64,000 nucleotides of DNA. Source: Mesorhizobium sp. YIM 152430 (lineage in GTDB: Bacteria > Pseudomonadota > Alphaproteobacteria > Rhizobiales > Rhizobiaceae). Within the stretch, counting starts at the first letter, position 1, and each line of letters starts with the position of its first letter. The notes under the pieces were generated by a model that was not told the origin of the DNA, did not search any database, and worked only from the letters and a program-made list of their open reading frames with translations. Both the position numbers and the translations under genes were made by a program. Positions 40,272 through 57,930 of the stretch are shown here, piece by piece. The stretch covers positions 248,001 to 312,000 of the forward strand of contig NZ_JARGES010000018.1 in the NCBI RefSeq assembly GCF_029210365.1, read 5' to 3'.

Positions 40272-40829
40272 TGCCGCCGCAAGATCGTTCCAGACGTCCT
40301 GCCGACGGATCTTCTCGGCCTCGACCTCGAAACGGTCGATGAACCGGATGTCGGCGAAGGGCGTGCCGTCGAGCCATTCGCCATGGAGCGTTCCCGAAAC
40401 GAAAACGGTCGTTACCGTGCCCGAATGGCTCTCGTCGACCAAGGCGATGGACTTGCGCACGAAGCGGTAGCGCGAGGCGGAGAACGCGACCAGATCGTCC
40501 AGGCTGGTCATCGCCGTGCCGTTCGCCTTGCCGGGAAACACCATCTCGAAGTCCGGGCTCAAATACCCTCGCGCGGCGTGAAGATCGCGCGCCTCCATCA
40601 GGCGCAGGAAATCGGCCACGATTTCGCCGGCCGGCCGCACCGCCGCGCCGGGTGAGCGTGGTGCGCGTCCGCGCATGTAGCTGCCGTCGTCGACTTCGTC
40701 GAACACCACTGTGATCGCATTGAGAGGGGCGTGGATCGTCGCGGCGACCGCGTCCGTCAGGCGCTCGGCAAGGCGTCGGCGAACATCGGCGCCATAGCCC
40801 CGGATCAACGTTCCGCGAATGATCGGCAT
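40257..40829 (-). CDS. Tautomerase (4-OT-like) fused to SnoaL-like domain
   Basis: 190 residues in two parts. Residues 1-60 look like a 4-oxalocrotonate tautomerase unit: Pro follows the initiator Met and could be the catalytic amino-terminal proline, with VVFDEVDDGSYMRGR further on. After a short linker, residues 68-185 resemble a SnoaL/NTF2-like cone fold (VADFLRLMEARDLHAARGYLSPDFEMVFPG), a fold used by small isomerases, cyclases and dehydratases. The joined form could carry out two successive steps on an unsaturated keto acid. It is divergent from the GntR gene and shares its control region, which ties it to the operon at 41845. Confidence 0.75.
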   Translation of the reverse strand: MPIIRGTLIRGYGADVRRRLAERLTDAVAATIHAPLNAITVVFDEVDDGSYMRGRAPRSPGAAVRPAGEIVADFLRLMEARDLHAARGYLSPDFEMVFPGKANGTAMTSLDDLVAFSASRYRFVRKSIALVDESHSGTVTTVFVSGTLHGEWLDGTPFADIRFIDRFEVEAEKIRRQDVWNDLAAAGATA

Positions 40830-40863: not shown

Positions 40864-40887
40864 TATAATGGTATATTGTTATATCAT
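40864..40887. promoter_or_regulatory. Promoter/operator in the divergent GntR - tautomerase region
   Basis: TATAAT at 40864-40869 is a perfect -10 hexamer reading toward the GntR gene. It overlaps a near-palindrome, ATGGTATA-TTGT-TATATCAT (40868-40887, seven of eight positions matching), of the GTATA/TATAC type bound by HutC regulators. The overlap suggests that the GntR protein represses its own promoter, and possibly the divergent tautomerase-fusion gene. Confidence 0.5.
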
Positions 40888-40894
40888 TAGTCAA

Positions 40895-41815
40895 ATGACG
40901 CAACGGCACCGCTCTTCCGGTGTCGGAAGCAAAGCGGGAAGCGGTGTGACGGAATTCGTGCGTGATATGGACCGGGAGCCGAATGTGCAGACAGGGCGCG
41001 CGGGCGCGCCGCGGCGGACGCTGATCGACCCGACGTCGCGCGTGCCGCTCTACCACCAGATCCTGATCATACTGCGCAACCAGATATTCTCCGGTGAGCT
41101 TCGTCCCGGCGCGGCGCTGCCCGGCGAACAGGAACTGGCCGAGCGTTTCGACGTCTCGCGCATAACGGCCAAGCGCGCGCTGAACGAGCTTGCCGATGCC
41201 GGCCTTGCGGTGCGCGAGCGCGGCCGGGGCACGCGCGTTTCGGACGCGCCGCCTGCGCCCACGGTCAAGACATCCGTCGAGGGCTGGCTGGAGAACATCT
41301 CGCTGATGGGCGTCGCGACCGATGTCGAGGTGCTGGAATTCGATTACGTGCCCGCCCTGTCGGAGGTGGCCGAAGCCTTGCTCGTCGCACAGGGCACGAT
41401 CGTCCAGCGAACCGTGCGCGTGCGCTCGCTTGATGGCGAACCGATGTCGCATCTCGTCACCTACGTGCCGGAGGACATCGGACGCTCGTTCGATCGCGAC
41501 GAGATGGGAAGTTTCCCGCTCCTGACGCTGATGGAGCGGCATGGCGTCAAGGTGGCCGACGCGCGCCAGAGCGTTACGGCGACCCTGGCCGAGCCGGAAG
41601 TCGCGCGCGCGCTCGCCATCCATGCCGGCTCGCCGCTGATCGACGTCCGGCGCATCGTGCGGGACGTCGACGACAGGCCGGTCGAATTCATTCGCGTGCT
41701 CTACCGGCCCGACAAGTACCAGTTCGAGATGAATCTGAAACGCGTGCGCCGGCGCGAGGGAATGCAGTGGCAGTCGCTCGGTCCGGGTTCCTCCGGCCGG
41801 TCGAACGAGAAGTGA
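40895..41815 (+). CDS. GntR-family (HutC/UTRA) transcriptional regulator
   Basis: About 306 residues from ATG 40895. The winged helix (LAERFDVSRITAKRALNELADAGLAVRERGRGTRVS) and a UTRA domain (GEPMSHLVTYVPEDIG, VEFIRVLYRPDKYQFEMNL) are clear. The start is uncertain: GTG 40946 and ATG 40967 are in frame and the first 50 residues are not conserved in character. It immediately precedes the Liv-type transporter gene (29 bases), so it is the probable repressor of the operon at 41845-54841, with a ligand derived from the pathway. Confidence 0.88.
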   Translation: MTQRHRSSGVGSKAGSGVTEFVRDMDREPNVQTGRAGAPRRTLIDPTSRVPLYHQILIILRNQIFSGELRPGAALPGEQELAERFDVSRITAKRALNELADAGLAVRERGRGTRVSDAPPAPTVKTSVEGWLENISLMGVATDVEVLEFDYVPALSEVAEALLVAQGTIVQRTVRVRSLDGEPMSHLVTYVPEDIGRSFDRDEMGSFPLLTLMERHGVKVADARQSVTATLAEPEVARALAIHAGSPLIDVRRIVRDVDDRPVEFIRVLYRPDKYQFEMNLKRVRRREGMQWQSLGPGSSGRSNEK

Positions 41816-41844: not shown

Positions 41845-43065
41845 ATGAAGACGCTTATCCATACGCCCATCAAACGCAGGCAGTTTCTGGCGGGAGCAGG
41901 AACTGCTGCTTTGGTGACCGGTTTTCCGGCCGTTCTGCGCGCCCAGGAGCCCGAGGCGATCCGCCTCGGGCTGGTCCATCCGGTGACCGGCTTCGTCTCG
42001 TTCTCCGGAACACAGTGCCGCGTGGGCGCCGAGATGGCGATCGCGGACATCAACGCCGCCGGCGGCATCCAGTCGATGAACGGCGCCAAGCTCGAGGCGA
42101 TGCTGGCCGACAGCCAGGGCCGTCCCGAGCTCGGCGCCTCCGAGACGGCGCGGCTCATCGAAGGTGGGGCGACCGGCATCATCGCCGGCTATTCGTCGGC
42201 GATCTCGCTCGCCACCTCGCAGGAAGCGGCCAAGACCATGACGCCGCACATCGTCGATGTCGGCGTCGCCGACAACATCATCCAGCGCAATCTCGAAAAC
42301 ACGTTCCGCTTCGCGCCCGGCTTCGGCTCGGTGGCGAATTCGGCCGTCGAGGCGCTGAAGGCAATCAATGCCAATGGCGACGCCAAGACCGCCGTCATCA
42401 TCCACGAGGAATCGCTGTTCGGCACCGGCACGGCCGAACTTCTGGCCAAGGAACTGCCGAATATCGGCATCGAGGTGCTGGAAGTCATCCGCCACGCCAA
42501 CCCGACGCGCGACTTCACCAACATCGCGCTTCAACTCCGCTCGCTCCAGCCGGACCTGATCATTCCGGCCAACTACTACAATGAATACGTCCTCCTCGCC
42601 CGCACGCTGCGCCAGCAGCGCATCGCGGCCAAGGGCATCTATTCGGTACTTGGCGGCGCTGCCTCGAACCTGCAATTCGTCCAGGAATTCCCGGATGCGG
42701 CCGAAAACATCATGGACTGCAACCACTGGTACGACCCCAATTCGGAGGTCGCCGTGCAGCGTCGCGCGGCCGCCGAGGAAAAGGGGCTGTTCTACACCTA
42801 CGAGATCTTCCTGGCCTACAACGCGGTCGCCTTCCTCGCCGATGCGATCGAGCGCGCCGGATCGACCGAGAACGAGGCGATCATCGAGGCCCTGAACGCC
42901 TCGACCTGGGACAATCACGGTATGCCCTACGGCCCGACGGTGATCGAGAACGGCCAGAACATGGGCGCGCAGGCGGTGAACACGCAGGTCCAGGGTGGCG
43001 AGATCCAGGTTATCCTGCCCGAAGAATTCGCTTCGGCAGAGGCGATCTTCCCCGTTCCGGCCTGA
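41845..43065 (+). CDS. Branched-chain amino acid/amide-type ABC substrate-binding protein
   Basis: A 406-residue periplasmic binding protein. The N-terminus KRRQFLAGAGTAALVTG has the twin-arginine pattern, so export may be by Tat. The mature part starts near EPEAIRLGLVHPVTG and follows the Leu/Ile/Val- or urea/amide-binding fold (GAEMAIADINAAGGI, IIAGYSSAIS). Ligand is unknown; the enzymes downstream suggest a cyclic amide, amide or unsaturated dicarboxylate. AGAGAGG precedes the ATG. A 9-bp GC stem-loop follows the gene and probably raises its expression above that of the permeases. Confidence 0.9.
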   Translation: MKTLIHTPIKRRQFLAGAGTAALVTGFPAVLRAQEPEAIRLGLVHPVTGFVSFSGTQCRVGAEMAIADINAAGGIQSMNGAKLEAMLADSQGRPELGASETARLIEGGATGIIAGYSSAISLATSQEAAKTMTPHIVDVGVADNIIQRNLENTFRFAPGFGSVANSAVEALKAINANGDAKTAVIIHEESLFGTGTAELLAKELPNIGIEVLEVIRHANPTRDFTNIALQLRSLQPDLIIPANYYNEYVLLARTLRQQRIAAKGIYSVLGGAASNLQFVQEFPDAAENIMDCNHWYDPNSEVAVQRRAAAEEKGLFYTYEIFLAYNAVAFLADAIERAGSTENEAIIEALNASTWDNHGMPYGPTVIENGQNMGAQAVNTQVQGGEIQVILPEEFASAEAIFPVPA

Positions 43066-43092
43066 CACCGGCTGACATCGCTTGAACGAAAC

Positions 43093-43117
43093 GGGCGCGG
43101 GAGCCGACCCCGCGCCC
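43093..43117 (+). promoter_or_regulatory. Intercistronic stem-loop after the binding-protein gene
   Basis: GGGCGCGGG (43093-43101) and CCCGCGCCC (43109-43117) form a perfect 9-bp stem with a seven-base loop, 27 bases after the binding-protein stop and 16 before the LivH ATG. There is no T-run, so it most likely protects the upstream mRNA from 3' decay or partly attenuates transcription, giving more binding protein than membrane components. Confidence 0.6.
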
Positions 43118-43133
43118 CAGCACAGGTCGCTTC

Positions 43134-44006
43134 ATGGTCGATCCGGTCATCCTCATACCATCTCTGATCAACGGGCTGACGACCGGCGCGCTCTATGCGC
43201 TGGTCGCGCTCGGGCTGACGCTGATTTACGGCGTCCTCCACATCATCAATTTCGCCCATGGCGCGATGCTGATGATGGCGCTTTACGGCGTCTTCTTTCT
43301 GAACCGACTGTTCGGCATCGACCCCTATGTCGCGCTGCTGATCGTGCCGCCGGCAATGTTCGCCATCGGCTACGCGCTCCAGCGCGGGATCATCGGCCGC
43401 GCCAGCCATGGTCGTGACGAGAACATCCTGCTGGTCACGCTCGGCCTCTCGATCATCATCGAGAACATGGCGCTCTATTTCTTCCGTTCGGACACCCGCA
43501 CCATCGAGACGCCCTATTCCTTCGAGGTGGTCGAGTTCGCCGGCGCCTTCGTCCCGGTCGCCAAGGTCGTCGCCTTCTTCGGCGCGCTGGTGACGGCGGC
43601 GCTGCTCTGGGCGTTCATGTCGAAGACCGATCTCGGCCGCGCCATCCGCGCGCTCGCCAAAGAGCGCAAGGGTGCGCGCCTCGTCGGCATCGACGTCGAC
43701 CACGTTTTCGCCATGAGCTTCGGCATCGGCGTCGCCTGCCTAGGCGTCGCGGCGTGCCTCTTGATGCCGAGCTACTATGTCAACCCGCAGGTCGGCTACG
43801 GCTTCGTGCTGATCGCCTTCACGACGGTCGTGCTCGGCGGCATGGGCTCCTTCGTCGGCGCCATGATCGGCGGGCTCGTCATCGGCGTCGTCGAAGCCAT
43901 GGGCGGATTGTTCCTTGGCGACAGCCTCGGCCAGTTCGGCATCTTCGCCATTTTCATCCTGATCCTGATGTTCCGGCCGACGGGACTTCTGGGCCACAAG
44001 GTCTGA
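43134..44006 (+). CDS. Branched-chain-type ABC transporter permease (LivH family)
   Basis: 290 residues with about eight hydrophobic helices. The family signature is visible in LINGLTTGALYALVALGLTLIYGVLHIINFAHG and in GYGFVLIAFTTVVLGGMGSFVGAMIGGLVIGVVE. It forms the inner-membrane pore with the LivM-like protein encoded nine bases downstream. Hydrophobic-acid transporters of this class also carry urea, amides and aromatic acids. Confidence 0.93.
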   Translation: MVDPVILIPSLINGLTTGALYALVALGLTLIYGVLHIINFAHGAMLMMALYGVFFLNRLFGIDPYVALLIVPPAMFAIGYALQRGIIGRASHGRDENILLVTLGLSIIIENMALYFFRSDTRTIETPYSFEVVEFAGAFVPVAKVVAFFGALVTAALLWAFMSKTDLGRAIRALAKERKGARLVGIDVDHVFAMSFGIGVACLGVAACLLMPSYYVNPQVGYGFVLIAFTTVVLGGMGSFVGAMIGGLVIGVVEAMGGLFLGDSLGQFGIFAIFILILMFRPTGLLGHKV

Positions 44007-44015
44007 GGCGGGCGG

Positions 44016-44993
44016 ATGGTCAACACCAGGCAACTCGCCGCGCTGCTCGTCATCTTCGGGCTGATCGCCACCTGTCCCTTCTGGATCGTCTCGCCTTCGG
44101 CGCTGAACACGGTGATCGCGATCCTCTACATCACGCTGCTCGGCCAGGCGTGGAACATTCTCGGCGGCTATGGCGGCCAGTTCTCCTTCGGCCACGCGGC
44201 CTTCTTCGGCACCGGCGCCTATACGGTGGCGGTGCTGCAAATCCAGTTCGGCACCAATCCGTGGCTCGGCATGATCGCGGGCGGGCTGCTCGCCATGGGC
44301 GTCGCGCTTTTCGTCGGCTTCGCCTCGTTCCGCTACGGGCTGCGCGGCTCCTATTTCGCGCTGGTGACGCTCGCCTTCGCCGAGGTGCTGCGCATCCTGT
44401 CAAACTCGGTCGGCTTCACCGGCGGCGGCGTCGGAATCCTGATCCCGCTCGAACGCAACCTCGCCAACATGCAGTTCGCCGACAATCGCGGCTATTTCTG
44501 GCTGATCTGGACGCTGTGCCTGGTCTGTTTCCTCACCGTCTGGTGGATCGGCCGCTCGCGCTTCGGCGCCTGGCTGATGGCGGTGCGCGACAATGAGGAT
44601 GCGGCGCGCGCGCTCGGCGTCGACGTGTTCAGGACCAAGATGGGTGCGGTCGCCCTGTCCGGCTTCTTCTCCGGGCTCGCCGGTGTCTTCTATGCCCAGT
44701 TCTACCTCTATCTCGATCCGCTGATCGCCTATGGCGCGGCGATCTCGATCGAATCCCTGCTGGTGCCGATCATCGGCGGCATGGGAACGCTGTTCGGCCC
44801 GCTGATCGGTGCCGCAGTGATCCACACCCTGTCCGAGGTCACGCGCCACAATATCGGCGACGTGCCTGGCGTGGCACTGGCCATTTACGGCGTGCTGCTG
44901 ATCGTCATCGTCATGTTCCTGCCGCGCGGGCTGATCAGCATCTTCTCCGTCGCCGGTCGCGTCCTCTCGAGATGGAGGCCGGCCAATGCTTGA
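44016..44993 (+). CDS. Branched-chain-type ABC transporter permease (LivM family)
   Basis: 325 residues with about nine hydrophobic helices. GQAWNILGGYGGQFSFGHAAFFGTGAYT, AVRDNEDAARALGVDVFRTKM and ESLLVPIIGGMGTLFGPLIGAAVIH are LivM landmarks. It pairs with the LivH-like permease. Its 3' end overlaps the LivG-like gene by eight bases. Confidence 0.93.
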   Translation: MVNTRQLAALLVIFGLIATCPFWIVSPSALNTVIAILYITLLGQAWNILGGYGGQFSFGHAAFFGTGAYTVAVLQIQFGTNPWLGMIAGGLLAMGVALFVGFASFRYGLRGSYFALVTLAFAEVLRILSNSVGFTGGGVGILIPLERNLANMQFADNRGYFWLIWTLCLVCFLTVWWIGRSRFGAWLMAVRDNEDAARALGVDVFRTKMGAVALSGFFSGLAGVFYAQFYLYLDPLIAYGAAISIESLLVPIIGGMGTLFGPLIGAAVIHTLSEVTRHNIGDVPGVALAIYGVLLIVIVMFLPRGLISIFSVAGRVLSRWRPANA

Positions 44994-45731
44994 GATCAAC
45001 GGAATCTCCAAATCCTTCGGCGGGCTGAGGGCGGTCGACAATGTGTCGATGAAGATCTCCGAAGGCAGTCTCGTTTCGCTGATCGGTCCCAACGGCGCCG
45101 GCAAGACGACGCTTTTCGCGCTCATCACCGGCTTCCACAAACCGGACAGCGGCACGGTGACGTTTGCGGGTAATGACATTCTGGGCGTGAAGCCGAGCGA
45201 GATCGCCCGCGCCGGCATGGTGCGCACCTTCCAGATCGTCCAGCCCTTCGCAGGCCAGACGGTGCGCGAGAACATCGCCGTCGGCGCGCATCTGCGTCAT
45301 GCCTCGCGCCGCGATGCACTCGACCGCGCGCGGGAAGTGGCTGAAATGGTGGGGCTGGGCGACCGGCTCGATCAGGACGCCGCAGACCTGACCGTCGCCG
45401 GCCGCAAGCGCCTCGAAGTCGCCCGCGCTCTGGCGACCGACCCCAAGCTCGTTCTTTTCGACGAAGTTCTTGCCGGGCTCAATCCGAGCGAGATCCGCGA
45501 CGTCATCCCGGTCATCCGCGCGGTGCGCGATTCGGGCGTGACCATTCTCCTGATCGAGCATGTGATGCAGGCGGTGATGAGCCTTTCGGAATACACCTTC
45601 GTGCTTAACCAGGGCCGGCTGATCGCCGAGGGCGAGCCGCGCGCTGTCGCGGCCGACCAGGCGGTCATCGAAGCCTATCTCGGGCCGGGCATGGCCGCGC
45701 GCCTGAAGGGCCAGTCGGCGCAGGTGCCGGC

Positions 45732-45735
<4 letters not shown>
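44986..45735 (+). CDS. ABC transporter ATP-binding protein (LivG family)
   Basis: A 249-residue ATPase with Walker A GPNGAGKTTLF, an ABC signature region ADLTVAGRKRLEVARALA and Walker B LVLFDEVLAGLNPSE followed by the switch His in LLIEHVMQ. The signature reads TVAGRKR rather than the usual LSGGQ-like form, as is common in LivG proteins. It energises uptake with the LivF-like partner, whose start overlaps its stop (ATGA at 45732). Confidence 0.93.
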
Positions 45736-46444
<709 letters not shown>

Positions 46445-46448
<4 letters not shown>

Positions 46449-47728
46449 CCATGCCCCGCGCGATGACGCTTGCCGAAAAGATCATCGCCCGCGCCGCCGG
46501 CCGCGCGACGGTCACGCCGGGCGAGGTGGTGACGACGAAGGTCGACCTCGCGATGATCCACGATTCCGGCGGTCCGCGCCGGGTCGAGCCGATCCTTAAG
46601 CGGCTCGGCGTCGGTCTGTTCGACAAAAAGAAGGTCGTGCTGATCTCGGACCACTACGTACCCGGCGACACGGAGGAGGGCGCGGCGATTTTGGCGCTTA
46701 CCCGCGCATGGGCGCAGGAAAAGGGCGTATCTTTTTATGACGGCGAGGGCATCTGTCATGTTGTCCTGCCCGAGCGTGGCCATCTCAAACCGGGAATGCT
46801 CGTGGTCGGCGGCGACAGCCATTCGCCGACCGGCGGCGCGTTCGGCGCCTATATGTTCGGCGTCGGCGCAACCGAGATGGCGGGCGTACTCGCCACCGGC
46901 GAGATCTGGCTGAAAGTGCCCGAGACGATCCGCATCGAATGGTCGGGCGCGCTTGGGCACCATCTGATGGCCAAGGACATGATCCTCGCCATGTGCGGCA
47001 GGCTCGGCATGGATGGCGGGCGCTACCAGGCAATCGAATATGCCGGCGAGACGGTGCGCGCGCTGTCGATGCAGGAGCGCATGACCATGTCGAACATGGC
47101 CGCGGAACTCGGCGCGCAGGCCGGGTTGATCGCGCCGGACGCAACGACGATTGACTGGCTTGCCGAACAGGGCGCGAACGACCTCCCCGATGCGACCGAC
47201 TGGCAGAGCGACGAGGGCGCGGTCGTCGTCGAAACGCACCGCTTCAACGCCGCGACGCTGGAGCCGCAGGTCGCTGCGCCTCATTCGCCGGCCAATTCGG
47301 CGGGCATAAGCGACTACGAGCCGACCGGCATCGACGTCGCCTATATCGGTGCTTGCACCGGCGCGAAATATGTCGACCTGAAAGCCGCGGCTGACATCAT
47401 TCACGGTCACACGCTGGCCAAGGGCGTCGAGCTTCTCGTCGCGCCGTCATCGAAGCGCGACCAGGAGCGCGCGGAGCGCGACGGCATCATGAAGGTGCTG
47501 GAGGATGCCGGCGCCAAGGTTCTCCCGAATGCCTGCGGCATTTGCGCCGGCTATGGCTCGGCGCGGCTCGGCGAGGATGTGACCTGCATCTCGACGACGG
47601 CGCGCAACTTCAAGGGCCGCATGGGCGCGAAATCCTCCAAGGTCTATCTCGGATCGCCCTATACGGTCGCCGCCTCGGCGATCGCCGGACGCATCGCCGA
47701 CCCGCGCGAATTCGGAGATGCGACATGA
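46445..47728 (+). CDS. Aconitase-family (3-isopropylmalate dehydratase-like) large subunit
   Basis: 427 residues of the LeuC type. The iron-sulfur cysteines are present in IGACTGAKY and in NACGICAGYG, so a 4Fe-4S cluster can form. GGDSHSPTGGAFGAYMFGVGATEMA is the family substrate/cluster region. It needs the small subunit encoded next. It lies with a lyase and cyclic-amide hydrolases, not with leuAB, so I expect it to hydrate a substituted maleate-type acid (as DmdA does with dimethylmaleate) rather than act in leucine synthesis. ATG 46445 is overlapped by the LivF stop; ATG 46451 is a possible alternative. Confidence 0.9.
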
Positions 47729-48225
47729 ACCGGGCTTTCGTCTTCGGCAGCGACATCGACACCGACGCGCTCGCGCCGGGTCAGTATATGGGCGGCGGGA
47801 TCGAGGTGCTGGCGCAGCATTGCCTCGAAGCCGTCGATCCCGAATTCGCATCGTCGGTGAAGCCGGGCGACGTGATCGTCGCGGGCAAAAATTTCGGCAC
47901 GGGTTCCTCGCGCGAGCAGGCCGCGCAGGCGCTCAAGCATCTGGGCGTCGCCGGCATCGTCGCGCGATCCTTTGCCGGCATCTTCCAGCGAAACGCCATA
48001 AATCTCGGCCTCCCGGTCTTCGTCGGCGGCGACGAGATCGCCGGGATAGAGGCTGGCGACGGCATCGAACTCGACGTTCGAAACAGCCGGCTAACGACCG
48101 CAAGCGGGACGATCGAACTACAGCCTTTGCCTGATTTTCTGATCGAGATGATCGCCGATGGCGGATTGGTGCCGCATCTCGAAAAACGCTTCGCGCGCGA
48201 GCGCGCAAACCGAGGAGAACAATAA
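47725..48225 (+). CDS. Aconitase-family (3-isopropylmalate dehydratase-like) small subunit
   Basis: 166 residues of the LeuD swivel domain. GSDIDTDALAPGQYM at the N-terminus and AGKNFGTGSSREQAAQAL, the substrate-contacting loop, identify it. It forms the hydro-lyase with the preceding large subunit. I start it at ATG 47725, which overlaps the large-subunit stop; the frame continues upstream only as an antisense-free shadow of that gene. The stop TAA shares its last base with the next ATG (48225). Confidence 0.92.
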   Translation: MNRAFVFGSDIDTDALAPGQYMGGGIEVLAQHCLEAVDPEFASSVKPGDVIVAGKNFGTGSSREQAAQALKHLGVAGIVARSFAGIFQRNAINLGLPVFVGGDEIAGIEAGDGIELDVRNSRLTTASGTIELQPLPDFLIEMIADGGLVPHLEKRFARERANRGEQ

Positions 48226-49100
48226 TGAAGCGCCTCAAAGCGCGCCTCGGCGACGAAGGCATCATCGTCGCGCCCGGTGTCTATGACGGCCTGTCGGCAC
48301 TGATCGCCGCACAGGCCGGCGCGGAAGCCATCTATCTCTCCGGCGCCTCGCTTGCCTATACGCGCTTCGGCCGTCCCGACATCGGGTTGGTCTCGATGAG
48401 CGAGGTCGCAGATACCGTCGCAGTCATCTGCGACCGCGTCGAACTGCCGCTGATCGTCGATGGCGACACCGGCTTCGGTAACGCGCTCAACGTGCAACGC
48501 ACTGTCCGTTCTTTCGAGCGCATGGGCGCGGCGGCGATCCAGCTCGAAGACCAGACGATGCCCAAGCGCTGCGGGCATCTCAATGGAAAGTCGCTGGTCT
48601 CGACCGGCGAGATGATCGGCAAGATCAAGGCGGCGACCGATGCGCGGTCGGCCGACGATTTCGTCGTCATCGCCCGCACCGATGCGGTCGGCGTGGACGG
48701 GTTCCAGGCCGGGCTCGATCGTGCCGCGGCCTATGCGGAAGCGGGCGCCGACATGGTGTTCGTCGAGGCGCCGCGCTCGCTCGACGAGATGAAGCAGATT
48801 GTCGCCACCCTTGGCGACCGCGTGCCATTGATGGCGAACATGGTGGAAGGCGGAAAGACGCCGCCGATGACGGCCAAGGATCTCGAAGAGCTCGGCTTCT
48901 CGCTGGTGATCTTCCCCGGTGGCCTGACGCGCGCGGTGGCCAGGATCAGCCGCGCCTATTTCGACAGCCTGCTCAAGTCGGGCTCCAATGCGGCCTTCCG
49001 CGACCGGATGTATGATTTTGCCGGCATCAACGCCGTCGTCGGCACCGAAGATTTGCTCGAAACCGGCAATGCCTATGACGAAAAGAGGTTCATTCCATGA
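48225..49100 (+). CDS. Isocitrate lyase/PEP mutase-family carbon-carbon lyase (2,3-dimethylmalate lyase-like)
   Basis: A 291-residue alpha/beta-barrel enzyme. The Mg-binding DGDTGFGN lies at about residues 79-86 and the flexible-loop motif KRCGH, with Cys116 as the expected acid/base, is intact. The motif places it with the C-C lyases (methylisocitrate and 2,3-dimethylmalate lyases) rather than with PEP mutases or oxaloacetate hydrolases. Following a LeuCD-type hydratase, it should split a substituted malate into pyruvate (or glyoxylate) and a short carboxylate, as Dml splits dimethylmalate to pyruvate and propionate. The exact substrate is inferred from context. Confidence 0.88.
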   Translation: MKRLKARLGDEGIIVAPGVYDGLSALIAAQAGAEAIYLSGASLAYTRFGRPDIGLVSMSEVADTVAVICDRVELPLIVDGDTGFGNALNVQRTVRSFERMGAAAIQLEDQTMPKRCGHLNGKSLVSTGEMIGKIKAATDARSADDFVVIARTDAVGVDGFQAGLDRAAAYAEAGADMVFVEAPRSLDEMKQIVATLGDRVPLMANMVEGGKTPPMTAKDLEELGFSLVIFPGGLTRAVARISRAYFDSLLKSGSNAAFRDRMYDFAGINAVVGTEDLLETGNAYDEKRFIP

Positions 49101-50788
49101 TCGATCCCGTCCTTCTGGCGATCCTCAAGGGGCGTCTGGAACAGATCGCCGACGAGATGGACGCGACGCTCTTCCGCTCGGCCTTCAATCCGATCATCGC
49201 CGAGGCGCATGACGCCTCGCACGGCATCTATGACGCAAAGACCGGCGACACGATGGTGCAGGGCAAGTCCGGCCTGCCGATCTTCGTCGGCGTCATGGCC
49301 TTTGCGGTCAAGGCGGTGATCGAGAAGGCGGCGAAGAGCGGTGGCCCGAAGGAAGGCGATGTGTGGATCTTCAACGATCCCTATGCCGGCGGCACGCATC
49401 TGTCCGATTTCCGGCTCGTGCGCCCGCTGTTTCGCAATGGCGAGGTGTTCTGCTACCTCGCCTCGGTTGGCCACTGGCACGATGTCGGCGGCAATGTGCC
49501 GGGCAACTACAATCCGGTCGCGACCGAAAGCTTCCAGGAGGGAATGCTGATCCCGCCGGTAAAGCTCTACGACGAGGGCGAACTTCGCCAGGACGTGATC
49601 GACATCCTGTCCTCCAACTCGCGTCTGCCGAACTCGCTCTTCGGCGATCTGAACGGCCAGATCAACGCGCTCGACCTCGGCGTCAAGCGGATGAACGAAC
49701 TTCTGTCCGAATATGGCGACGAGACGGTGTCTGGCGCGCTCGGCGAACTCAAGGCGCGCGCGGCGATGCTGATGCGCGCCGAGATCGACAAACTGCCGCA
49801 GGGCACGATTTCGGCCGAAGATTACCTCGACAATGACGGCATCGTCGACGAACCGCTGACCATCGCGCTCGACCTGACGATCGCGAACGGCCGCATGGTG
49901 ATGGACTTCTCGCGCTCGTCTCCCGCCTGCGCCGGGCCGGTCAACATCTCCCGCGCGACGACGATCGCCGCCTGCTATGTCGCCCTGAAACACGTATTCG
50001 GCGACGTGCCGGCCAATGCCGGCGTGCTCGAGCCGGTCGACTTCGTCATTCCAGAGGACAGCCTCCTGTCGGTCGTCGCGCCCAAGCCGGTGGGCGGCTA
50101 CACAGAGACGATCCTGCGCCTGATCGACGTCGTATTCCAGGCGATCGCGAAGATCGCACCGGAGCGCTCGAACGGCTGCGCCTATGGCACGATCAACGCA
50201 CTGTCGCTGGCAGGCTATCGCGGCACGGACAGGCAGCGCTGGGTGATGTTCTCCTTCTTCGGCGGCGGCCATGGCGGCCATCCGGAAGGTGACGGGCTGA
50301 ACCACGGCAACGCGCCGATTTCGACCGCGACGATCCCGCCGCTCGAAATCCTGGAAGCGGCCTATCCGGTCATGTTCACGCAATGGGCTTTGCGCCCCGA
50401 CTCGGGTGGTCCTGGCAAGAGCCGTGGCGGCCTCGGCGCGATCTACGAGCTCGAATTGCTGGAAGAAAATGCCGACGTGTTTCTGTTCGGCGAGCGCGGA
50501 CGCTTTGCGCCGAAGGGTGTCGCCGGTGGCGGCGACGCCGTGCTGAACCGCTTTTCCTATGAGCAGGCCGATGGCGAGCACCGCCCGCCGATGGCCTCCA
50601 AGATGGTCGGCATCAAGCTGAAGCGTGGCCAGAAGGTGCGGTTGGAGACGCCCGGCGGCGGCGGATATGGCCCGACCTCCGAGCGCGACCCGGCGAAGAT
50701 CGAGCGCGACATCGCGCTCGGCTACGTTACGCGCGAAGCGGCCGACCGCGACTACGGCCACGGATTGAAGAAGGATGCGGCGGCATGA
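49097..50788 (+). CDS. Hydantoinase B/oxoprolinase family protein (HyuB type)
   Basis: 563 residues covering the B half of ATP-dependent cyclic amide hydrolases. EQIADEMDATLFRSAFNPIIAE, the strongly conserved WIFNDPYAGGTHLSDF, SFFGGGHGG and the C-terminal LETPGGGGYG are present. With the A subunit encoded next it should open a lactam, hydantoin or imide ring at the cost of ATP. It overlaps both neighbours by four bases (ATGA). Substrates of characterised members include N-methylhydantoin, 5-oxoproline and caprolactam; which, if any, applies here is unknown. Confidence 0.92.
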   Translation: MIDPVLLAILKGRLEQIADEMDATLFRSAFNPIIAEAHDASHGIYDAKTGDTMVQGKSGLPIFVGVMAFAVKAVIEKAAKSGGPKEGDVWIFNDPYAGGTHLSDFRLVRPLFRNGEVFCYLASVGHWHDVGGNVPGNYNPVATESFQEGMLIPPVKLYDEGELRQDVIDILSSNSRLPNSLFGDLNGQINALDLGVKRMNELLSEYGDETVSGALGELKARAAMLMRAEIDKLPQGTISAEDYLDNDGIVDEPLTIALDLTIANGRMVMDFSRSSPACAGPVNISRATTIAACYVALKHVFGDVPANAGVLEPVDFVIPEDSLLSVVAPKPVGGYTETILRLIDVVFQAIAKIAPERSNGCAYGTINALSLAGYRGTDRQRWVMFSFFGGGHGGHPEGDGLNHGNAPISTATIPPLEILEAAYPVMFTQWALRPDSGGPGKSRGGLGAIYELELLEENADVFLFGERGRFAPKGVAGGGDAVLNRFSYEQADGEHRPPMASKMVGIKLKRGQKVRLETPGGGGYGPTSERDPAKIERDIALGYVTREAADRDYGHGLKKDAAA

Positions 50789-52839
50789 GCGGAAAGCGCT
50801 ATGTAATCGGCGTCGATGTCGGTGGAACCTTCACCGACATCTTCGTCTACGACCAGATCGACCACACCGTGCAGACGACCAAGATCCCGTCGACGCGCGG
50901 CGACCAGTCGAAGGGCTTTGCCGAAGGCATTTCCCGCATCGTAGCGGATTTCTCCGAGATCGCGACGGTCGTCCATGGCACCACGGTCGGCACCAACGCG
51001 CTTCTGGAGCGCAAGGGCGCGCGGACGGGCATCATCACCACGCGCGGCTTTCGCGACGTGATCGAGATGCGCCGCCGTGACCGGCCGACGACATGGGGTC
51101 TGTGGGGGCAGTACGCACCCGTCATAAGCCGCGAGCATCGCCTGGAAGTGAGCGAGCGCGTGCTGGCCGACGGCACGGTGCGCGAAGCGGTCAATGACGA
51201 CGAGGTTCGCGCGCAGGCCGAACAACTGCGCGCCGCCGGTTGCGACGCCGTCTGCATCTTCTTCGTCAACGGTTACGCGAACGACGCCAACGAGCGGCAG
51301 GCGGTCGAAGCCGTCCGCGCCGTCTGGCCGAACGGTTACGTGACGGCGGCGACCGAGATCGTGCCGGAAATCCGCGAATTCGAGCGGCTGTCGACAGCGG
51401 CGCTCAATGCCTATCTCCAGCCCGTCGTCTCGTCCTATCTCGAACGTCTGGAAAAGACACTGAAGGCGCGCGGCTTTGCCGGCGACATCCTGATCGTCCA
51501 GTCGAATGGCGGGGTGATGGCCATCGACACCGCCAAACGCTTCCCGGTCCGCACGGCTCTGTCCGGTCCGGCCGCGGGCGTCATGGCCGCGCAGGCGATT
51601 GCGAAAGCCGCAGGCTTCCCGAACGTGATCACCTGCGACATGGGCGGCACGTCCTTCGACGTCTCGCTGGTCGCCGACGGGCAAAGCGCGCTCGCCTCGC
51701 AGACCGCCATCGATTTCGGTCTCGTCGTGCGCACGCCGATGATCGAGATTTCGACCATCGGCGCGGGCGGCGGTTCCATCGCCGGCATCGACAATGGCGG
51801 GATATTGCAAGTCGGGCCGGAATCGGCCAGCTCCGATCCCGGTCCCGTCTGCTACGGTCTCGGCAATGACCGCCCGACCGTCACCGACGCCAATGTCGTC
51901 CTCGGCCGCATCAATGCCGACCGGCCGATCGGCGGCAAGCTGGCGCGTCTCGACGTCGAGGCCGCGCGGCGCGCGATCGAAACCCATGTGGCGGGTCCGC
52001 TGGGCCTTTCCGTCGAGGAAGCGGCCGAAGCGATTTTGAAGATCGCAAACGCCAGGATGGCCGGCGCGATCCGGCTCGTCTCGATCGAGCGCGGGCACGA
52101 TCCGGCCGACTTCGCCGCCATGCCCTTCGGCGGCGGCGGCGCACTCCATACCGGCGCGCTGATCAAGGAGGTGGGGCTCAACTCGGCGCTGGTGCCGCGC
52201 TTTCCGGGCGTCACATCTGCGCTTGGCTGCGTCGTCGCGGACATGCGCCACGACCGCGTGCAGACGGTCAACCGCCTGCTTGACGGGCTCGATGCCTCGT
52301 CGCTCGGCGCCGAGATGAAGAAGGTCAGCGACGAGACGGCCGAGCTCCTCAAGGCTGCTGGCGTCTTCTTCGAGCGCGTCGACCGCATCTTCGAACTCGA
52401 CATGCTCTATCTCGGTCAGACGCACACGGTCTCCGTGCCGCTCGACATGCCGGCGGGCGATCTGACGGTCGATGTGATCCGCGATGCGTTCGAGGCGGCT
52501 TACCGATCGGCCTTCGGGCGGCTTCTGGCAGGCATTCCGATGCGCGTCATGAACTACCGCGTCGCGGTCGTCGGTCGGCGCCCCGTCTTCGACATGGGCG
52601 CCTTCGCGCCGGTCACCGACAAGACGGCCGACCAGTGCCTGACCGGCAGCCGCAAGGTCTATGCCGAAGGCGCCTGGCACGACACGCCGCTCTATGACCG
52701 GCTCGCTCTGCCGGTCGGTGCAGAAATTGCCGGTCCCGCGATTCTCGAACAGGCCGACACGACGATCTTCGTCGATCCTGGCCTTATGGGCAGCGTGGAC
52801 GACTTCGGAAACGTCGTCATCTCGCGGGCGGCGAAGTGA
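50785..52839 (+). CDS. Hydantoinase A/oxoprolinase family protein (HyuA type)
   Basis: 684 residues of the actin-like ATPase half. It has [59 protein letters not shown] and TIGAGGGSIAGID. It phosphorylates the ring amide carbonyl, which the B subunit then hydrolyses. The split A/B arrangement and IGVDVGGT opening differ from the single-chain 5-oxoprolinase at 62732. Its TGA overlaps the following isochorismatase-fold gene. Confidence 0.93.
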   Translation: MSGKRYVIGVDVGGTFTDIFVYDQIDHTVQTTKIPSTRGDQSKGFAEGISRIVADFSEIATVVHGTTVGTNALLERKGARTGIITTRGFRDVIEMRRRDRPTTWGLWGQYAPVISREHRLEVSERVLADGTVREAVNDDEVRAQAEQLRAAGCDAVCIFFVNGYANDANERQAVEAVRAVWPNGYVTAATEIVPEIREFERLSTAALNAYLQPVVSSYLERLEKTLKARGFAGDILIVQSNGGVMAIDTAKRFPVRTALSGPAAGVMAAQAIAKAAGFPNVITCDMGGTSFDVSLVADGQSALASQTAIDFGLVVRTPMIEISTIGAGGGSIAGIDNGGILQVGPESASSDPGPVCYGLGNDRPTVTDANVVLGRINADRPIGGKLARLDVEAARRAIETHVAGPLGLSVEEAAEAILKIANARMAGAIRLVSIERGHDPADFAAMPFGGGGALHTGALIKEVGLNSALVPRFPGVTSALGCVVADMRHDRVQTVNRLLDGLDASSLGAEMKKVSDETAELLKAAGVFFERVDRIFELDMLYLGQTHTVSVPLDMPAGDLTVDVIRDAFEAAYRSAFGRLLAGIPMRVMNYRVAVVGRRPVFDMGAFAPVTDKTADQCLTGSRKVYAEGAWHDTPLYDRLALPVGAEIAGPAILEQADTTIFVDPGLMGSVDDFGNVVISRAAK

Positions 52840-53453
52840 TGGCGACGGGACCGATTGATGTCACGAGATCGGCGCTGCTGATCGTCGATCTGCAGAACGA
52901 TTTTATCGACCCGAAGGGCGCCTATGGCCGGGCCGGCCAGACGGCGGCGATGATCGCCGAACTGCCGGCGCGCCTGAAGCCGTTGGCAGATGTCTTGCGC
53001 GCCAAGGGCGGGTTCGTGATATCGACGCAGTTTACGCTGGTTCCGGGCCGTGGCGGCAAGCCGATGATCTCGCCGCATCTGAAGGATCTGCGCCCGTTTC
53101 TGAAAAAGGGCGATTTCCAGCCCGGCGCATGGGGCCATCAACTGGTCGATGTCCTTCAGCCGGCCGATTTCACGGTCGAAAAGGTGGCATACTCGGCCTT
53201 CTTCCAATCGCGGATGGAATTCGTGCTGAAGAAGGCCGGGATCGAGACCCTGTTCGTCTGCGGCATCGTCACCAATGGGGGCGTCGCCTCGACGGTGCGC
53301 GACGCGCATGTGCGTGACTTTCGCACTTTCGTCCTGTTGGACGGCTGCGGTGCGTTCTCTCAAGCCACGCACGACAACGCGATCCGCGACCTGTCGACTG
53401 TGACGAAGGCCATAACTGTCGCCGAGGCGATCGGGATGGTTCAAGGCGCATGA
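52839..53453 (+). CDS. Isochorismatase-fold hydrolase-like protein lacking the catalytic cysteine
   Basis: 204 residues from ATG 52839 (TGATG overlap with hyuA; a GTG at 52836 is the other option). The fold is that of cysteine hydrolases: Asp17 (LIVDLQNDF) and Lys115 (FTVEKVAYS) match two of the three catalytic residues. The third position, in GIVTNGGVASTVRDA, is Gly148 where amidases of this family (nicotinamidase, maleamate amidohydrolase, RutB) have Cys. True isochorismatases such as EntB and PhzD also have Gly there and do not use a nucleophilic Cys. So it may not be an amidase; it could act on an enol ether or bind a pathway intermediate. Its operon position suggests a step after ring opening. 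Confidence 0.85.
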   Translation: MATGPIDVTRSALLIVDLQNDFIDPKGAYGRAGQTAAMIAELPARLKPLADVLRAKGGFVISTQFTLVPGRGGKPMISPHLKDLRPFLKKGDFQPGAWGHQLVDVLQPADFTVEKVAYSAFFQSRMEFVLKKAGIETLFVCGIVTNGGVASTVRDAHVRDFRTFVLLDGCGAFSQATHDNAIRDLSTVTKAITVAEAIGMVQGA

Positions 53454-54841
53454 GCGCCGTCCTGCCAGCGTCTGCGATGCGCGCGGATGCAGAGGTCGAC
53501 GTGGCGATCATCGGCGCAGGTGCCTGCGGGCTGGTCGCCGCATTGCGCGCGGTTGAGGCCGGTGCCGACGTGCTGGTTCTGGAACGTGACACGAAGCCGA
53601 CCGGCTCGACATCGATGTCGTCCGGCTTCATTCCCGCGCCCGCGACGCGCTTCCAGCGTGCTATCGGGGTCGAGGACGACACGCCGGAACGCCTCGCCGC
53701 CGATATTCAGGCGAAGACGAAGAATCGCTCAGATGCCGGCCTCGTCGCGACGGTTTCGGAGGCAATCGGTCCGGCGCTCGAATGGCTGGCCGACAGCCAC
53801 GGTCTCGAATGGATCGTGCTCGACGATTTCCTCTATCCCGGCCATTCGCGCCACCGGATGCACGCGGTGCCTGAAAAGACCGGCGCGGCGCTGCTTCAAA
53901 GGCTGGCGACGGCTGCGGATGCGGCGGGCGTTCCGGTCGCAACGGGGGCGCATGTGACCGGCTTGTTCGCCGATGGCGAAATCGTCAGGGGCGTGCGGAT
54001 TGCGCGCAATGACGGCGCCGAAGAGCACCTGGCCTGCACGGCGCTGATCCTCGCCTGCAACGGCTATGGCGGCAATGCCGGCCTCGTCGCGCGCCACATC
54101 CCGGAACTGGAGGATGCGCAATATTACGGCCATGCCGGCAACCAGGGCGATGCGGTGCTGTGGGGCGAAGCGCTCGGCGCCGACATCCGCGATCTTTCCG
54201 GCTATCAGGGCCACGGCTCGCTCGCCCACCCGCATCAGATCCTGATTTCCTGGGCGTTGATGATGGAGGGCGGCATCCAGGTGAATGTCGACGGGCGGCG
54301 GTTCTCCAACGAGCATTCGGGCTATTCGGAGCAGGCCGTCAAGGTTCTCGACCAGCCTGACCGGGTCGCCTGGAACCTCTACGACCAGCGCATCCACGAT
54401 TTCGCGCGGTCTTTTCCGGACTATCGCGACGCGATGCAGGCCGGCGCGATCCGGCAGGCCGACAGCCTGGACGATCTGGCGCGGGCGATCGGCGTCGATC
54501 CGCGCGCGCTTTCCGACACGCTGCGCATGGTGGCGACATTGCAATCGGGCGAAGGCTCGGATGCGTTCGGACGCGACTTCACGACCAGGCCGGCGCTCAA
54601 GGCGCCGCTCTACGCGGTGAAGGTCACGGGTGCCCTGTTCCACACGCAGGGCGGCCTGATGGTCGATGGCGAAGCGCGGGTTCTTTCTGCCGAAGGCAAG
54701 CCGTTTCCCAATCTCTTCGCCGGCGGCGGCGCGGCGTGCGGGGTTTCCGGCCCGGATGTTTCTGGTTACCTGTCCGGTAACGGCCTTCTCACGGCCATCG
54801 CGCTCGGCTATGTCGCGGGGCGCAGTTCGGCGGCTGGTTGA
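53450..54841 (+). CDS. FAD-dependent oxidoreductase (fumarate reductase/3-ketosteroid dehydrogenase-like flavoprotein)
   Basis: 463 residues of the FAD-binding_2 family. The dinucleotide motif VAIIGAGACGLVAALRAVEAG and the following acidic residue (LVLERD) are at the N-terminus. ILACNGYGGNAGLV and, near the C-terminus, FHTQGGLMVDGEARVL complete the family pattern. Such flavoproteins reduce or introduce a C=C bond next to a carbonyl or carboxylate. Here it could desaturate or reduce the dicarboxylic intermediate handled by the LeuCD-like enzyme. No signal peptide is evident. It is the last gene of the operon, followed by a hairpin. Confidence 0.88.
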   Translation: MSAVLPASAMRADAEVDVAIIGAGACGLVAALRAVEAGADVLVLERDTKPTGSTSMSSGFIPAPATRFQRAIGVEDDTPERLAADIQAKTKNRSDAGLVATVSEAIGPALEWLADSHGLEWIVLDDFLYPGHSRHRMHAVPEKTGAALLQRLATAADAAGVPVATGAHVTGLFADGEIVRGVRIARNDGAEEHLACTALILACNGYGGNAGLVARHIPELEDAQYYGHAGNQGDAVLWGEALGADIRDLSGYQGHGSLAHPHQILISWALMMEGGIQVNVDGRRFSNEHSGYSEQAVKVLDQPDRVAWNLYDQRIHDFARSFPDYRDAMQAGAIRQADSLDDLARAIGVDPRALSDTLRMVATLQSGEGSDAFGRDFTTRPALKAPLYAVKVTGALFHTQGGLMVDGEARVLSAEGKPFPNLFAGGGAACGVSGPDVSGYLSGNGLLTAIALGYVAGRSSAAG

Positions 54842-57923: not shown

Positions 57924-57930
57924 TAAAACC

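What the first reader, a model, noticed from the sequence alone, without database searches (positions are those of the whole stretch)
41845..54841. Twelve-gene coupled operon for a cyclic amide or imide via a dimethylmaleate-like branch
Nearly every junction after LivH overlaps, so the set is one pathway. Its logic is: uptake (Liv ABC), ATP-driven ring opening (HyuA/HyuB), a Cys-less isochorismatase-fold step, a flavin redox step, hydration of an unsaturated dicarboxylate (LeuCD-like) and C-C cleavage (ICL family with KRCGH). The last two steps mirror DmdAB and Dml, which turn 2,3-dimethylmaleate into pyruvate and propionate in nicotinate fermentation. Substituted maleimides, such as those from tetrapyrrole breakdown, or substituted lactams are possible substrates. 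I know of no described pathway with this composition.
Basis: inference. Interest (0 to 1): 0.65.

Follow-up and report, generated by a model that had tools for sequence, protein, structure and literature searches.

The report
Operon for breaking down cyclic imides
A set of co-regulated bacterial genes, also found in many other soil and ocean bacteria, looks like an undescribed pathway that imports a small ring-shaped amide, opens it with ATP and splits it into central metabolites, possibly a breakdown product of chlorophyll or heme.

Summary
Twelve same-strand genes (41845-54841) encode a Liv-type ABC importer, LeuCD-like hydratase, PrpB-like lyase, HyuB/HyuA, a Cys-less isochorismatase-fold protein and a flavoprotein; 9 of 11 junctions overlap. 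A GntR gene and a divergent tautomerase/SnoaL gene flank a palindromic operator just upstream. Across 59 de-duplicated loci with both HyuA and the isochorismatase-fold protein, 51 have the lyase and 43 the flavoprotein; two LeuCD types replace each other (34 versus 12 loci, never both). So this is a conserved, mostly alphaproteobacterial module; I found no description of it in ten paper searches.

New evidence points to glutarate as one product: glutaryl-CoA dehydrogenase in 6 of 59 loci, a succinate-glutarate-CoA-transferase-like gene in 5. With a PrpB-like lyase (pyruvate released), the simplest skeleton is 2-methyl-3-(2-carboxyethyl)maleimide, hematinic acid, or its dihydro form from chlorins. 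That identity is inference (about 0.3); a homoaconitate-type route and other lactams remain open. Only an assay or growth test can decide.

The parts
40257..40829 (-). Tautomerase (4-OT-like) N-terminal domain fused to a SnoaL/DUF4440-like domain; divergent from the operon
   Evidence: Pfam; in 15 of 59 HyuA+ISO loci as fetched, a lower bound because some stretches stopped short of it; overlaps HyuB by 4 bp in Sulfitobacter
40866..40889 (.). Palindromic operator TAATGgTATAttgtTATAtCATTA between the tautomerase and GntR genes
   Evidence: Palindrome scan; same motif at the GntR or first-gene promoter in relatives; whole-genome search, 12 of 19 genomes with a site
40895..41815 (+). GntR/UTRA (HutC-type) regulator, ends 29 bp before the SBP gene; ATG start chosen after the operator (the mechanical ORF starts at TTG 40856)
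   Evidence: Pfam GntR and UTRA; sequence
41845..43065 (+). LivJ/K-type substrate-binding protein
   Evidence: Pfam Peripla_BP_6; best PDB relatives are named Leu/Ile/Val-binding proteins
43134..44006 (+). LivH-type permease
   Evidence: Pfam BPD_transp_2
44016..44993 (+). LivM-type permease
   Evidence: Pfam BPD_transp_2
44986..45735 (+). LivG-type ATPase
   Evidence: Pfam ABC_tran and BCA_ABC_TP_C
45732..46448 (+). LivF-type ATPase
   Evidence: Pfam ABC_tran
46445..47728 (+). LeuC/DmdA/HacA-family hydratase, large subunit
   Evidence: NF001614 517.7 bits (cut-off 385), TIGR01343 441.5 (385.7), TIGR02086 429.1 (410.15)
47725..48225 (+). LeuD/DmdB-family hydratase, small subunit (ATG at 47725, 4-bp overlap)
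   Evidence: TIGR02087 LeuD/DmdB 174.9 bits (cut-off 108.95); start from sequence
48225..49100 (+). PrpB/isocitrate-lyase superfamily C-C lyase, KRCGH motif
   Evidence: Pfam PEP_mutase; TIGR02317 prpB 300.1 bits, below its cut-off of 354.4; closest PDB are 2-methylisocitrate lyases
49097..50788 (+). HyuB, hydantoinase B/oxoprolinase subunit
   Evidence: Pfam Hydantoinase_B 552 bits
50785..52839 (+). HyuA, ATP-dependent hydantoinase A/oxoprolinase subunit
   Evidence: Pfam Hydantoinase_A and N/C domains; closest PDB: N-methylhydantoinase and 5-oxoprolinase
52836..53453 (+). Isochorismatase-fold protein (ISO) with Gly149 in place of the catalytic Cys (Asp18 and Lys116 kept)
   Evidence: Pfam; alignment of 62 rows; PDB alignments
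53450..54841 (+). FAD_binding_2 flavoprotein (FAD), flavocytochrome-c/KSTD superfamily, Tyr292 and Tyr440 at the positions of the fumarate-reductase arginines
   Evidence: Pfam; TIGR01813 229.7 bits, below its cut-off of 285.45; PDB alignments; both Tyr in 49 of 49 rows

Best explanation
A GntR-regulated catabolic operon for a small five-membered cyclic imide or lactam carrying a methyl and a 2-carboxyethyl side chain, most likely hematinic acid (2-methyl-3-(2-carboxyethyl)maleimide, a tetrapyrrole breakdown product) and its dihydro (succinimide) form. Proposed order: (1) uptake by the Liv-type ABC importer, or by TRAP in relatives. (2) The flavoprotein, acting on ring carbonyls rather than carboxylates, oxidises the saturated ring to the maleimide; racemase- and epimerase-fold genes in some relatives deal with stereoisomers. 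(3) HyuA/HyuB opens the ring with ATP to the maleamate. (4) The Cys-less isochorismatase-fold enzyme releases ammonia, the substrate's own neighbouring carboxylate serving as nucleophile, to give the alkylated maleate. (5) The LeuCD-like enzyme hydrates it to a malate derivative. (6) The PrpB-like lyase splits this into pyruvate and glutarate. (7) Glutarate is activated by a CaiB-type CoA transferase and oxidised by glutaryl-CoA dehydrogenase. Shown: gene identities, conservation, shared operator, residue changes, presence of glutarate genes. Inferred: every substrate and every reaction.
For: Conserved module: of 59 de-duplicated loci with HyuA and ISO, 51 have the lyase and 43 the flavoprotein; of the 48 of at least 15 kb, 45 have the lyase and 46 a LeuC type 1, LeuC type 2 or MmgE/PrpD gene. 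The three long loci without the lyase (L095, L097, L100) come from one genus whose lyase and flavoprotein lie in a second Liv-type cluster. LeuC types 1 and 2 exclude each other (34, 12, 0 both), as expected for two hydratases doing one job. Glutarate: glutaryl-CoA dehydrogenase in 6 of 59 loci and a CaiB gene in 5 of 59; the two CaiB proteins scanned match succinate-glutarate CoA-transferase best (533 bits against 295 and 301 for the next family, but below the cut-off of 750); the window's genome has homologues of both elsewhere, at 80% and 54% identity. The LeuD loop position that is Arg in homoaconitases (recalled) is Lys in 19 and Arg in 3 of 33 rows, which would suit an extra carboxylate on the substrate, although it is Gly in the window. 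PrpB-type lyase keeping the Pro of PrpB (FPGG in 47 of 48 rows). Flavoprotein: both fumarate-reductase arginines are Tyr, the two His kept; no match at E <= 1e-30 in 3 of 12 searched genomes, one of them only 86% complete, which suits a step needed only for saturated substrates. [quoted passage not shown] Hematinic acid occurs in leaves (PMC7318184, passages; simple maleimides were not detected there). C8 = pyruvate (C3) + glutarate (C5).
Against: No substrate was tested. Glutarate genes are in only 6 (GCDH) and 5 (CaiB) of 59 loci, from about four and three lineages; GCDH is, from general knowledge, a common gene, and no GCDH or glutarate-CoA-transferase equivalog cut-off was reached. I recognised no tetrapyrrole- or bilin-degrading genes beside the clusters, though neighbours were not scanned systematically. 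The window's own LeuD loop has Gly, not Lys or Arg. The tautomerase/SnoaL, MmgE/PrpD and Asp/Glu-racemase-fold genes are not needed for a planar maleimide. Two loci (L037, L054) pair the isochorismatase-fold gene with an HspB/PnpA-like flavin monooxygenase, a CaiB and another LeuCD, without HyuAB or the lyase, so that protein may act on something broader, such as a pyridine-derived compound. The type 2 LeuCD scanned passes the cut-offs of true LeuC and LeuD. The best PDB relatives of the SBP are named branched-chain amino acid binding proteins.
Confidence: 0.35

Rival explanations
1. Homoaconitate-type route: a six-membered lactam such as a reduced 6-oxopyridine-2,3-dicarboxylate is opened by HyuAB to an enamine, the Cys-less isochorismatase-fold enzyme hydrolyses the enamine as EntB/PhzD hydrolyse a vinyl ether, and the LeuCD-like and lyase steps act on homoaconitate/homoisocitrate to give glyoxylate + glutarate.
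For: The same glutarate genes. The large subunit matches the homoaconitate hydratase family (TIGR01343, 441.5 bits, cut-off 385.7). The loop position that is Arg in homoaconitases (recalled) is Lys or Arg in 22 of 33 LeuD rows. Isochorismatases (PhzD, EntB; vinyl-ether chemistry recalled) are among the PDB relatives of ISO.
Against: Homoaconitase equivalog cut-offs are not met (NF040615 389.7 of 550, NF040625 149.4 of 230). The window's loop has Gly. The lyase is PrpB-like, not ICL-like. No ring reductase was recognised in the operon. (Confidence raised from 0.18 to 0.20 after the loop was recounted.)
Confidence: 0.2
2. Catabolism of another lactam or imide (for example opine lactams, alkyl succinimides, N-carboxyalkyl amino acid lactams), the MmgE/PrpD and Asp/Glu-racemase-fold proteins acting as epimerases.
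For: The MmgE relative tested (L036) is closest to iminodisuccinate epimerase in the PDB. The authors of PMC6733357 suggest that HyuAB genes may open opine lactams (passages). Racemase-fold genes lie in 5 of 59 loci.
Against: Such substrates do not obviously need a LeuCD/PrpB-type pair or glutarate genes. The cluster also occurs in marine SAR116 and Rhodobacteraceae genomes.
Confidence: 0.17
3. One reading: a DmdAB/Dml-like branch acting on 2,3-dimethylmaleate, giving pyruvate + propionate.
For: The small subunit lies in the LeuD/DmdB subfamily above cut-off; lyase superfamily match.
Against: Co-located genes in some relatives are for glutarate. None of the other nicotinate-fermentation enzymes is among the twelve genes.
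Confidence: 0.12
4. Housekeeping: leucine synthesis or the methylcitrate cycle beside an unrelated transporter.
For: Family-level names only (LeuC, LeuD, PrpB). The lyase is the only full-length PrpB-like match in the genome.
Against: A separate LeuC-type frame exists in the genome; LeuC, LeuD and PrpB equivalog cut-offs are not met; the genes sit with HyuAB and ISO in dozens of loci.
Confidence: 0.03

Closest known systems
DmdAB + Dml branch of nicotinate fermentation (Eubacterium barkeri; recalled)
   Same: Two-subunit LeuCD-family hydratase followed by an ICL-superfamily lyase on an alkylated maleate/malate
   Different: Here joined to ATP-dependent ring opening, a Cys-less isochorismatase fold and a KSTD-like flavoprotein; relatives carry glutarate genes; no B12 mutase or enamidase among the twelve genes
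2-methylcitrate cycle (PrpD/AcnD/PrpB)
   Same: PrpB-like lyase; some relatives add MmgE/PrpD-family proteins
   Different: No citrate-type synthase among the twelve genes; lyase below the PrpB cut-off with FPGG where the closest PrpB has YPLS
ATP-dependent hydantoinase/lactamase HyuAB (N-methylhydantoinase, 5-oxoprolinase, caprolactamase)
   Same: Same two-subunit family
   Different: Well below the caprolactamase cut-offs (537.7 and 297.9 of 1000)
Maleamate pathway of aerobic nicotinate degradation (NicF amidase, NicE isomerase; recalled)
   Same: Isochorismatase-fold step; a maleate-isomerase/arylmalonate-decarboxylase-like gene in L030, L037, L052, L054
   Different: Catalytic Cys absent; ring opened by HyuAB; hydration and lyase instead of fumarate formation
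Creatinine/N-methylhydantoin route (HyuAB then N-carbamoylsarcosine amidase; recalled)
   Same: HyuAB followed by an isochorismatase-fold enzyme
   Different: The second enzyme lacks the nucleophilic Cys; carbon-skeleton cleavage follows

Membership tests
LeuCD/DmdAB/HacAB hydratase family | Match to curated subfamily models above cut-off | tested here: met
   NF001614 517.7/385, TIGR01343 441.5/385.7, TIGR02086 429.1/410.15, TIGR02087 174.9/108.95
LeuCD of leucine biosynthesis | Equivalog cut-offs | tested here: not met
   TIGR00170 246.4/560.25, TIGR02083 364/610.65; TIGR00171 44/116.25; separate LeuC-type frame in the genome. The type 2 LeuCD of one relative (L165) does pass (634.1/560.25, 187.2/116.25)
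Homoaconitase (HacAB) | Equivalog cut-offs | tested here: not met
   NF040615 389.7/550, NF040625 149.4/230
Homoaconitase (HacAB) | Arg in the YLRT specificity loop of the small subunit (recalled) | tested here: inconclusive
   Gly in the window; across 33 rows Lys 19, Gly 5, Arg 3, Ser 3, Ala 2, His 1
DmdAB/Dml nicotinate branch | Activity on dimethylmaleate/dimethylmalate | not testable with these tools
   needs enzyme assay
DmdAB/Dml nicotinate branch | Accompanying nicotinate-fermentation enzymes in the operon | tested here: not met
   none of the twelve genes; not searched genome-wide
2-methylisocitrate lyase PrpB | Equivalog cut-off | tested here: not met
   TIGR02317 300.1/354.4, NF008455 256.7/353
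ICL/PrpB lyase superfamily | KRCGH catalytic motif | tested here: met
   residues 114-118; in 48 of 48 rows
HyuA/HyuB ATP-dependent cyclic amide hydrolase/carboxylase family | Hydantoinase A N, core and C domains plus Hydantoinase_B | tested here: met
Caprolactamase CapAB | Equivalog cut-offs | tested here: not met
   537.7/1000 and 297.9/1000
Isochorismatase-family cysteine amidohydrolases | Catalytic Asp-Lys-Cys triad | tested here: not met
   Asp18 and Lys116 in 62 of 62 rows; the Cys position is Gly in 57, Ala in 1, Cys in 4, the four being the distant 24-34% rows; PDB alignment
Fumarate reductase / flavocytochrome c | Carboxylate-binding arginines (R402, R544 numbering recalled) | tested here: not met
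   Tyr292 and Tyr440 in their places, His255 and His398 kept, in 49 of 49 rows; TIGR01813 229.7/285.45
Succinate-glutarate CoA-transferase (accessory CaiB in relatives) | Equivalog cut-off NF052585 | tested here: not met
   best match by a wide margin but 532.7 and 533.1 of 750 in the two scanned
Glutaryl-CoA dehydrogenase (accessory gene in relatives) | Catalytic Glu and substrate-binding Arg motifs (YEGT, SGYR; recalled) | tested here: met
   both present in 7 of 7 sequences examined, one of them a duplicate
Glutaryl-CoA dehydrogenase (accessory gene in relatives) | NCBIfam equivalog cut-off (NF045552) | tested here: not met
   229.1, 214.8 and 211.7 of 470 in the three scanned

The most novel reading that the evidence does not exclude
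This is the first catabolic pathway for tetrapyrrole-derived maleimides: hematinic acid and its chlorin-derived dihydro form are imported, opened by an ATP-dependent imidase, deaminated by a Cys-less isochorismatase-fold enzyme that borrows the substrate's own carboxylate, hydrated by a LeuCD paralogue and cut to pyruvate + glutarate.
Probability: 0.3. Interest if true: 0.82.

Novelty: new variant of a known kind. Interest (0 to 1): 0.6.

Why it matters
Chlorophyll and heme are turned over on an enormous scale, yet I found no description, in ten paper searches, of how their last one-ring fragments return to central metabolism in bacteria. The cluster's anchor protein is widespread (15 of 101 relatives; 26 of 385 class genomes; 30 of 72,556 plasmid records) and its holders include marine SAR116 and Rhodobacteraceae, Azospirillum, Sulfitobacter and Paraburkholderia. 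A specific growth substrate and a specific lyase product are now testable. Even if the substrate proves to be another lactam, the module is a conserved, apparently undescribed pathway with a Cys-less isochorismatase-fold enzyme and a tyrosine-for-arginine flavoprotein worth assaying.

Tried and rejected
Leucine synthesis and the methylcitrate cycle were rejected on cut-offs and a separate LeuC-type frame. Flavoprotein as fumarate reductase or tricarballylate dehydrogenase: disfavoured, both arginines lost and TcuA score far below cut-off (149.3 of 369). LeuCD replaced by MmgE/PrpD in Microvirga (L042): only tentative, because L036, L038, L096 and L168 carry both. An argument I first made, that the LeuD loop excludes homoaconitase-type substrates, fell on recount: the position is Lys or Arg in 22 of 33 rows. 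Searches for a published pathway gave nothing relevant. PMC11982470 was searched for PrpB specificity residues without result, so those residues are recalled. I considered homarine (search listing), opine lactams, riboflavin and vitamin B6 routes (recall only) and kept opine lactams as part of a rival. I did not run structure prediction or fold search: fold membership was already clear from sequence and I judged that they would not settle the substrate.

Rows dropped before counts: L032, L033, L034 (same genomes as L018-L020 by the gene maps), L046, L047, L048, L056, L057 (dropped as near-duplicates by gene map) and L165 (identical ISO to L100). Five ISO loci without HyuA (L037, L054, L102, L116, L118) and L031 (33% ISO, below threshold) are outside the 59. 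The 59 include the plasmid loci L164 and L166-L171.

Full report
OBSERVATION. The window holds twelve same-strand genes from 41845 to 54841: SBP, LivH, LivM, LivG, LivF, LeuC-like, LeuD-like, lyase, HyuB, HyuA, isochorismatase-fold protein (ISO), flavoprotein (FAD). Nine of eleven junctions overlap; the two exceptions are 68 and 9 bp. A GntR/UTRA regulator ends 29 bp before the SBP gene, and a tautomerase-SnoaL fusion gene is divergent. Between these two genes lies a palindrome, TAATGgTATAttgtTATAtCATTA, 40866-40889.

CONSERVATION. ISO was used as the anchor. With the window's own genome counted, it was found in 15 of 101 relatives at E <= 1e-20 (one of them, G022, is a 33% match without the cluster), in 26 of 385 genomes of the class and 8 of 398 of the phylum at E <= 1e-45, in 26 loci of a species-level collection (which finds close relatives only) and in 30 of 72,556 plasmid records. 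After removing duplicates, 64 loci hold ISO and 59 of these also hold HyuA. Of the 59, 51 have the lyase, 43 FAD, 34 LeuC type 1, 12 LeuC type 2, 20 LivH, 9 a TRAP permease (two of these, L018 and L019, beside Liv genes and probably unrelated), 15 the tautomerase gene, 6 glutaryl-CoA dehydrogenase, 5 the CaiB gene and 5 an Asp/Glu-racemase-fold gene. These are lower bounds, because some stretches were cut; for instance the tautomerase gene also stands beside GntR in G002, G037 and G053. Of the 48 loci that are 15 kb or longer, 45 have the lyase, 34 FAD and 46 a LeuC of either type or an MmgE/PrpD gene. The three without the lyase (L095, L097, L100) belong to one genus; their lyase and flavoprotein sit in a second cluster with GntR, Liv genes, MmgE/PrpD and racemase-fold genes. 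The counts are not corrected for kinship.

SUBSTITUTIONS THAT SPEAK. LeuC type 1 (archaeal/DmdA-like) and type 2 (bacterial LeuC-like; the one scanned passes the LeuC and LeuD cut-offs) never occur together: 34, 12 and 0 both, Fisher p = 4.6e-6 without correction for kinship. This is what two hydratases doing one job would give. The transporter is exchanged for TRAP in several relatives. In 12 genomes searched for FAD at E <= 1e-30, 3 had no match (G073, G467 and G454, the last only 86% complete) and the other 9 had it away from the HyuAB cluster, so it is not always needed.

REGULON. The motif ATGNTATANNNNTATANCAT, up to one mismatch, was searched in 19 whole genomes; 12 have it, at 14 sites, 10 of them exact. 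Twelve sites lie at the promoter of the main cluster, upstream of GntR or LeuC (G002, G037 and G053 checked). The 13th, the second site in G101, lies between a tautomerase gene and a GntR gene followed by TRAP genes. The 14th, in G088, lies upstream of a gene whose sequence I read as TauD/TfdA-like and a DUF2848 gene. The reversed control pattern matched in 3 of 19 genomes. The other seven genomes, all with the cluster, have no site, so their regulators must use other operators.

RESIDUES. ISO keeps Asp18 and Lys116 in 62 of 62 rows but has Gly149 where RutB has its Cys: Gly in 57, Ala in 1, Cys in 4, the last being distant 24-34% rows. FAD aligns with Shewanella fumarate reductases, but both substrate arginines (402 and 544, numbering recalled) are Tyr (292, 440) and the two histidines are kept, in 49 of 49 rows. 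This resembles ketosteroid dehydrogenases (recalled) and fits a carbonyl or imide substrate better than a dicarboxylate. The lyase is closest to 2-methylisocitrate lyases, below the PrpB cut-off (300.1 of 354.4). The PrpB Pro is kept in 47 of 48 rows (FPGG; FSAG in L024), and Tyr-Thr/Ser-Arg follows the SGA motif in 46 of 48. That the Pro marks 2-alkyl substrates is recalled, not tested. The LeuD loop is YM or FM followed by Lys (19), Gly (5), Arg (3), Ser (3), Ala (2) or His (1) in 33 rows. Homoaconitases have Arg there (recalled), so most relatives, though not the window, have a basic residue that could hold an extra carboxylate; this suits both a carboxyethyl-substituted maleate and homoaconitate.

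GLUTARATE LINK. In L027, L028 and L036 a glutaryl-CoA dehydrogenase gene directly follows FAD. In L028, and in the Tistrella-type loci L095, L097 and L100 (L165 is the named copy of L100), a CaiB gene accompanies it; L094 has the CaiB alone. The two CaiB proteins scanned score 533 bits against succinate-glutarate CoA-transferase and 295 and 301 against the next family, below the curated 750. The acyl-CoA dehydrogenases carry the recalled GCDH motifs in 7 of 7 sequences but reach no NCBIfam equivalog cut-off; that they are GCDH rests on motif and my reading of the sequence. The window's genome has homologues of both elsewhere, at 80% and 54% identity. If one lyase product is glutarate and the lyase is PrpB-like (pyruvate as the other), the malate-type intermediate is 2-methyl-3-(2-carboxyethyl)malate and the maleate before it is the diacid of hematinic acid. 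I know of no other common natural imide with this skeleton (recall). A PrpD-type or epimerase-type role for the MmgE genes (closest PDB of the one tested: iminodisuccinate epimerase) and racemase-fold genes would suit the saturated, stereo-rich chlorin-derived form.

WHY A CYS-LESS AMIDASE IS CHEMICALLY REASONABLE. In passages of a review (PMC8751315), amides of alkylated maleic acids break down through intramolecular cyclisation, faster with more substituents; [quoted passage not shown] An enzyme for this reaction would need acid-base residues, not a Cys. The alternative, EntB/PhzD-like hydrolysis of an enamine, is equally compatible with the residues.

WHAT DOES NOT FIT. In L037 and L054 the ISO and GntR genes sit with an HspB/PnpA-like monooxygenase, a maleate-isomerase/arylmalonate-decarboxylase-like gene, a CaiB and a third LeuC type, without HyuAB; neither genome has the lyase at E <= 1e-20, and the best HyuA is 42% and 37% identical. 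L116 and L118 (ISO 53%) also lack HyuA; L102 is cut by a contig end. The role of the tautomerase-SnoaL protein is open.

LITERATURE. Ten full-text searches gave no description of this gene set or of bacterial hematinic-acid catabolism; eight of them were aimed at that, 46 and 80 at enzyme specificity and chemistry. Most subscription papers are missing from the library. I saw search listings only, except passages of PMC6733357, PMC8751315 and PMC7318184; PMC11982470 was searched and gave no passage.

VERDICT. Real, conserved, undescribed as far as I could search. The pathway logic (uptake, ATP-dependent ring opening, deamination, hydration, C-C cleavage) is well supported by anatomy; the substrate is a testable inference.

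Noticed in passing
window 54874-62452 (minus strand): A second catabolic-looking cluster converges on the operon: LysR, a 263-aa protein without Pfam match, amidase, DUF2848, TRAP DctM/Q/P and a D-glutamate cyclase family gene. The gene maps of relatives do not show it next to the operon.
   Followed up: partly
L194:12920-14810 (G088:C18): An exact copy of the GntR operator lies upstream of a gene that reads as TauD/TfdA-like, a DUF2848 gene and what reads as a Dpp-type ABC transporter, suggesting a further regulon member.
   Followed up: partly
L037 and L054: Variant clusters with the isochorismatase-fold gene, GntR, an HspB/PnpA-like flavin monooxygenase, a maleate-isomerase/arylmalonate-decarboxylase-like protein, a CaiB and a third LeuCD type, but no HyuAB or lyase.
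   Followed up: partly
L036:1936-2703, L166:14521-15947, L147:16070-17592: Asp/Glu-racemase-fold proteins; in the one read by eye (L036) the cysteines of hydantoin racemases appear to be missing too (sequence, racemase motif recalled), a second Cys-less variant in the same pathway.
   Followed up: no
window 12001-28000: Lower-GC stretch (down to 0.52 against about 0.65) with polysaccharide-synthesis genes: epimerases/dehydratases, a sugar transferase, a flippase-like gene and glycosyltransferases.
   Followed up: no
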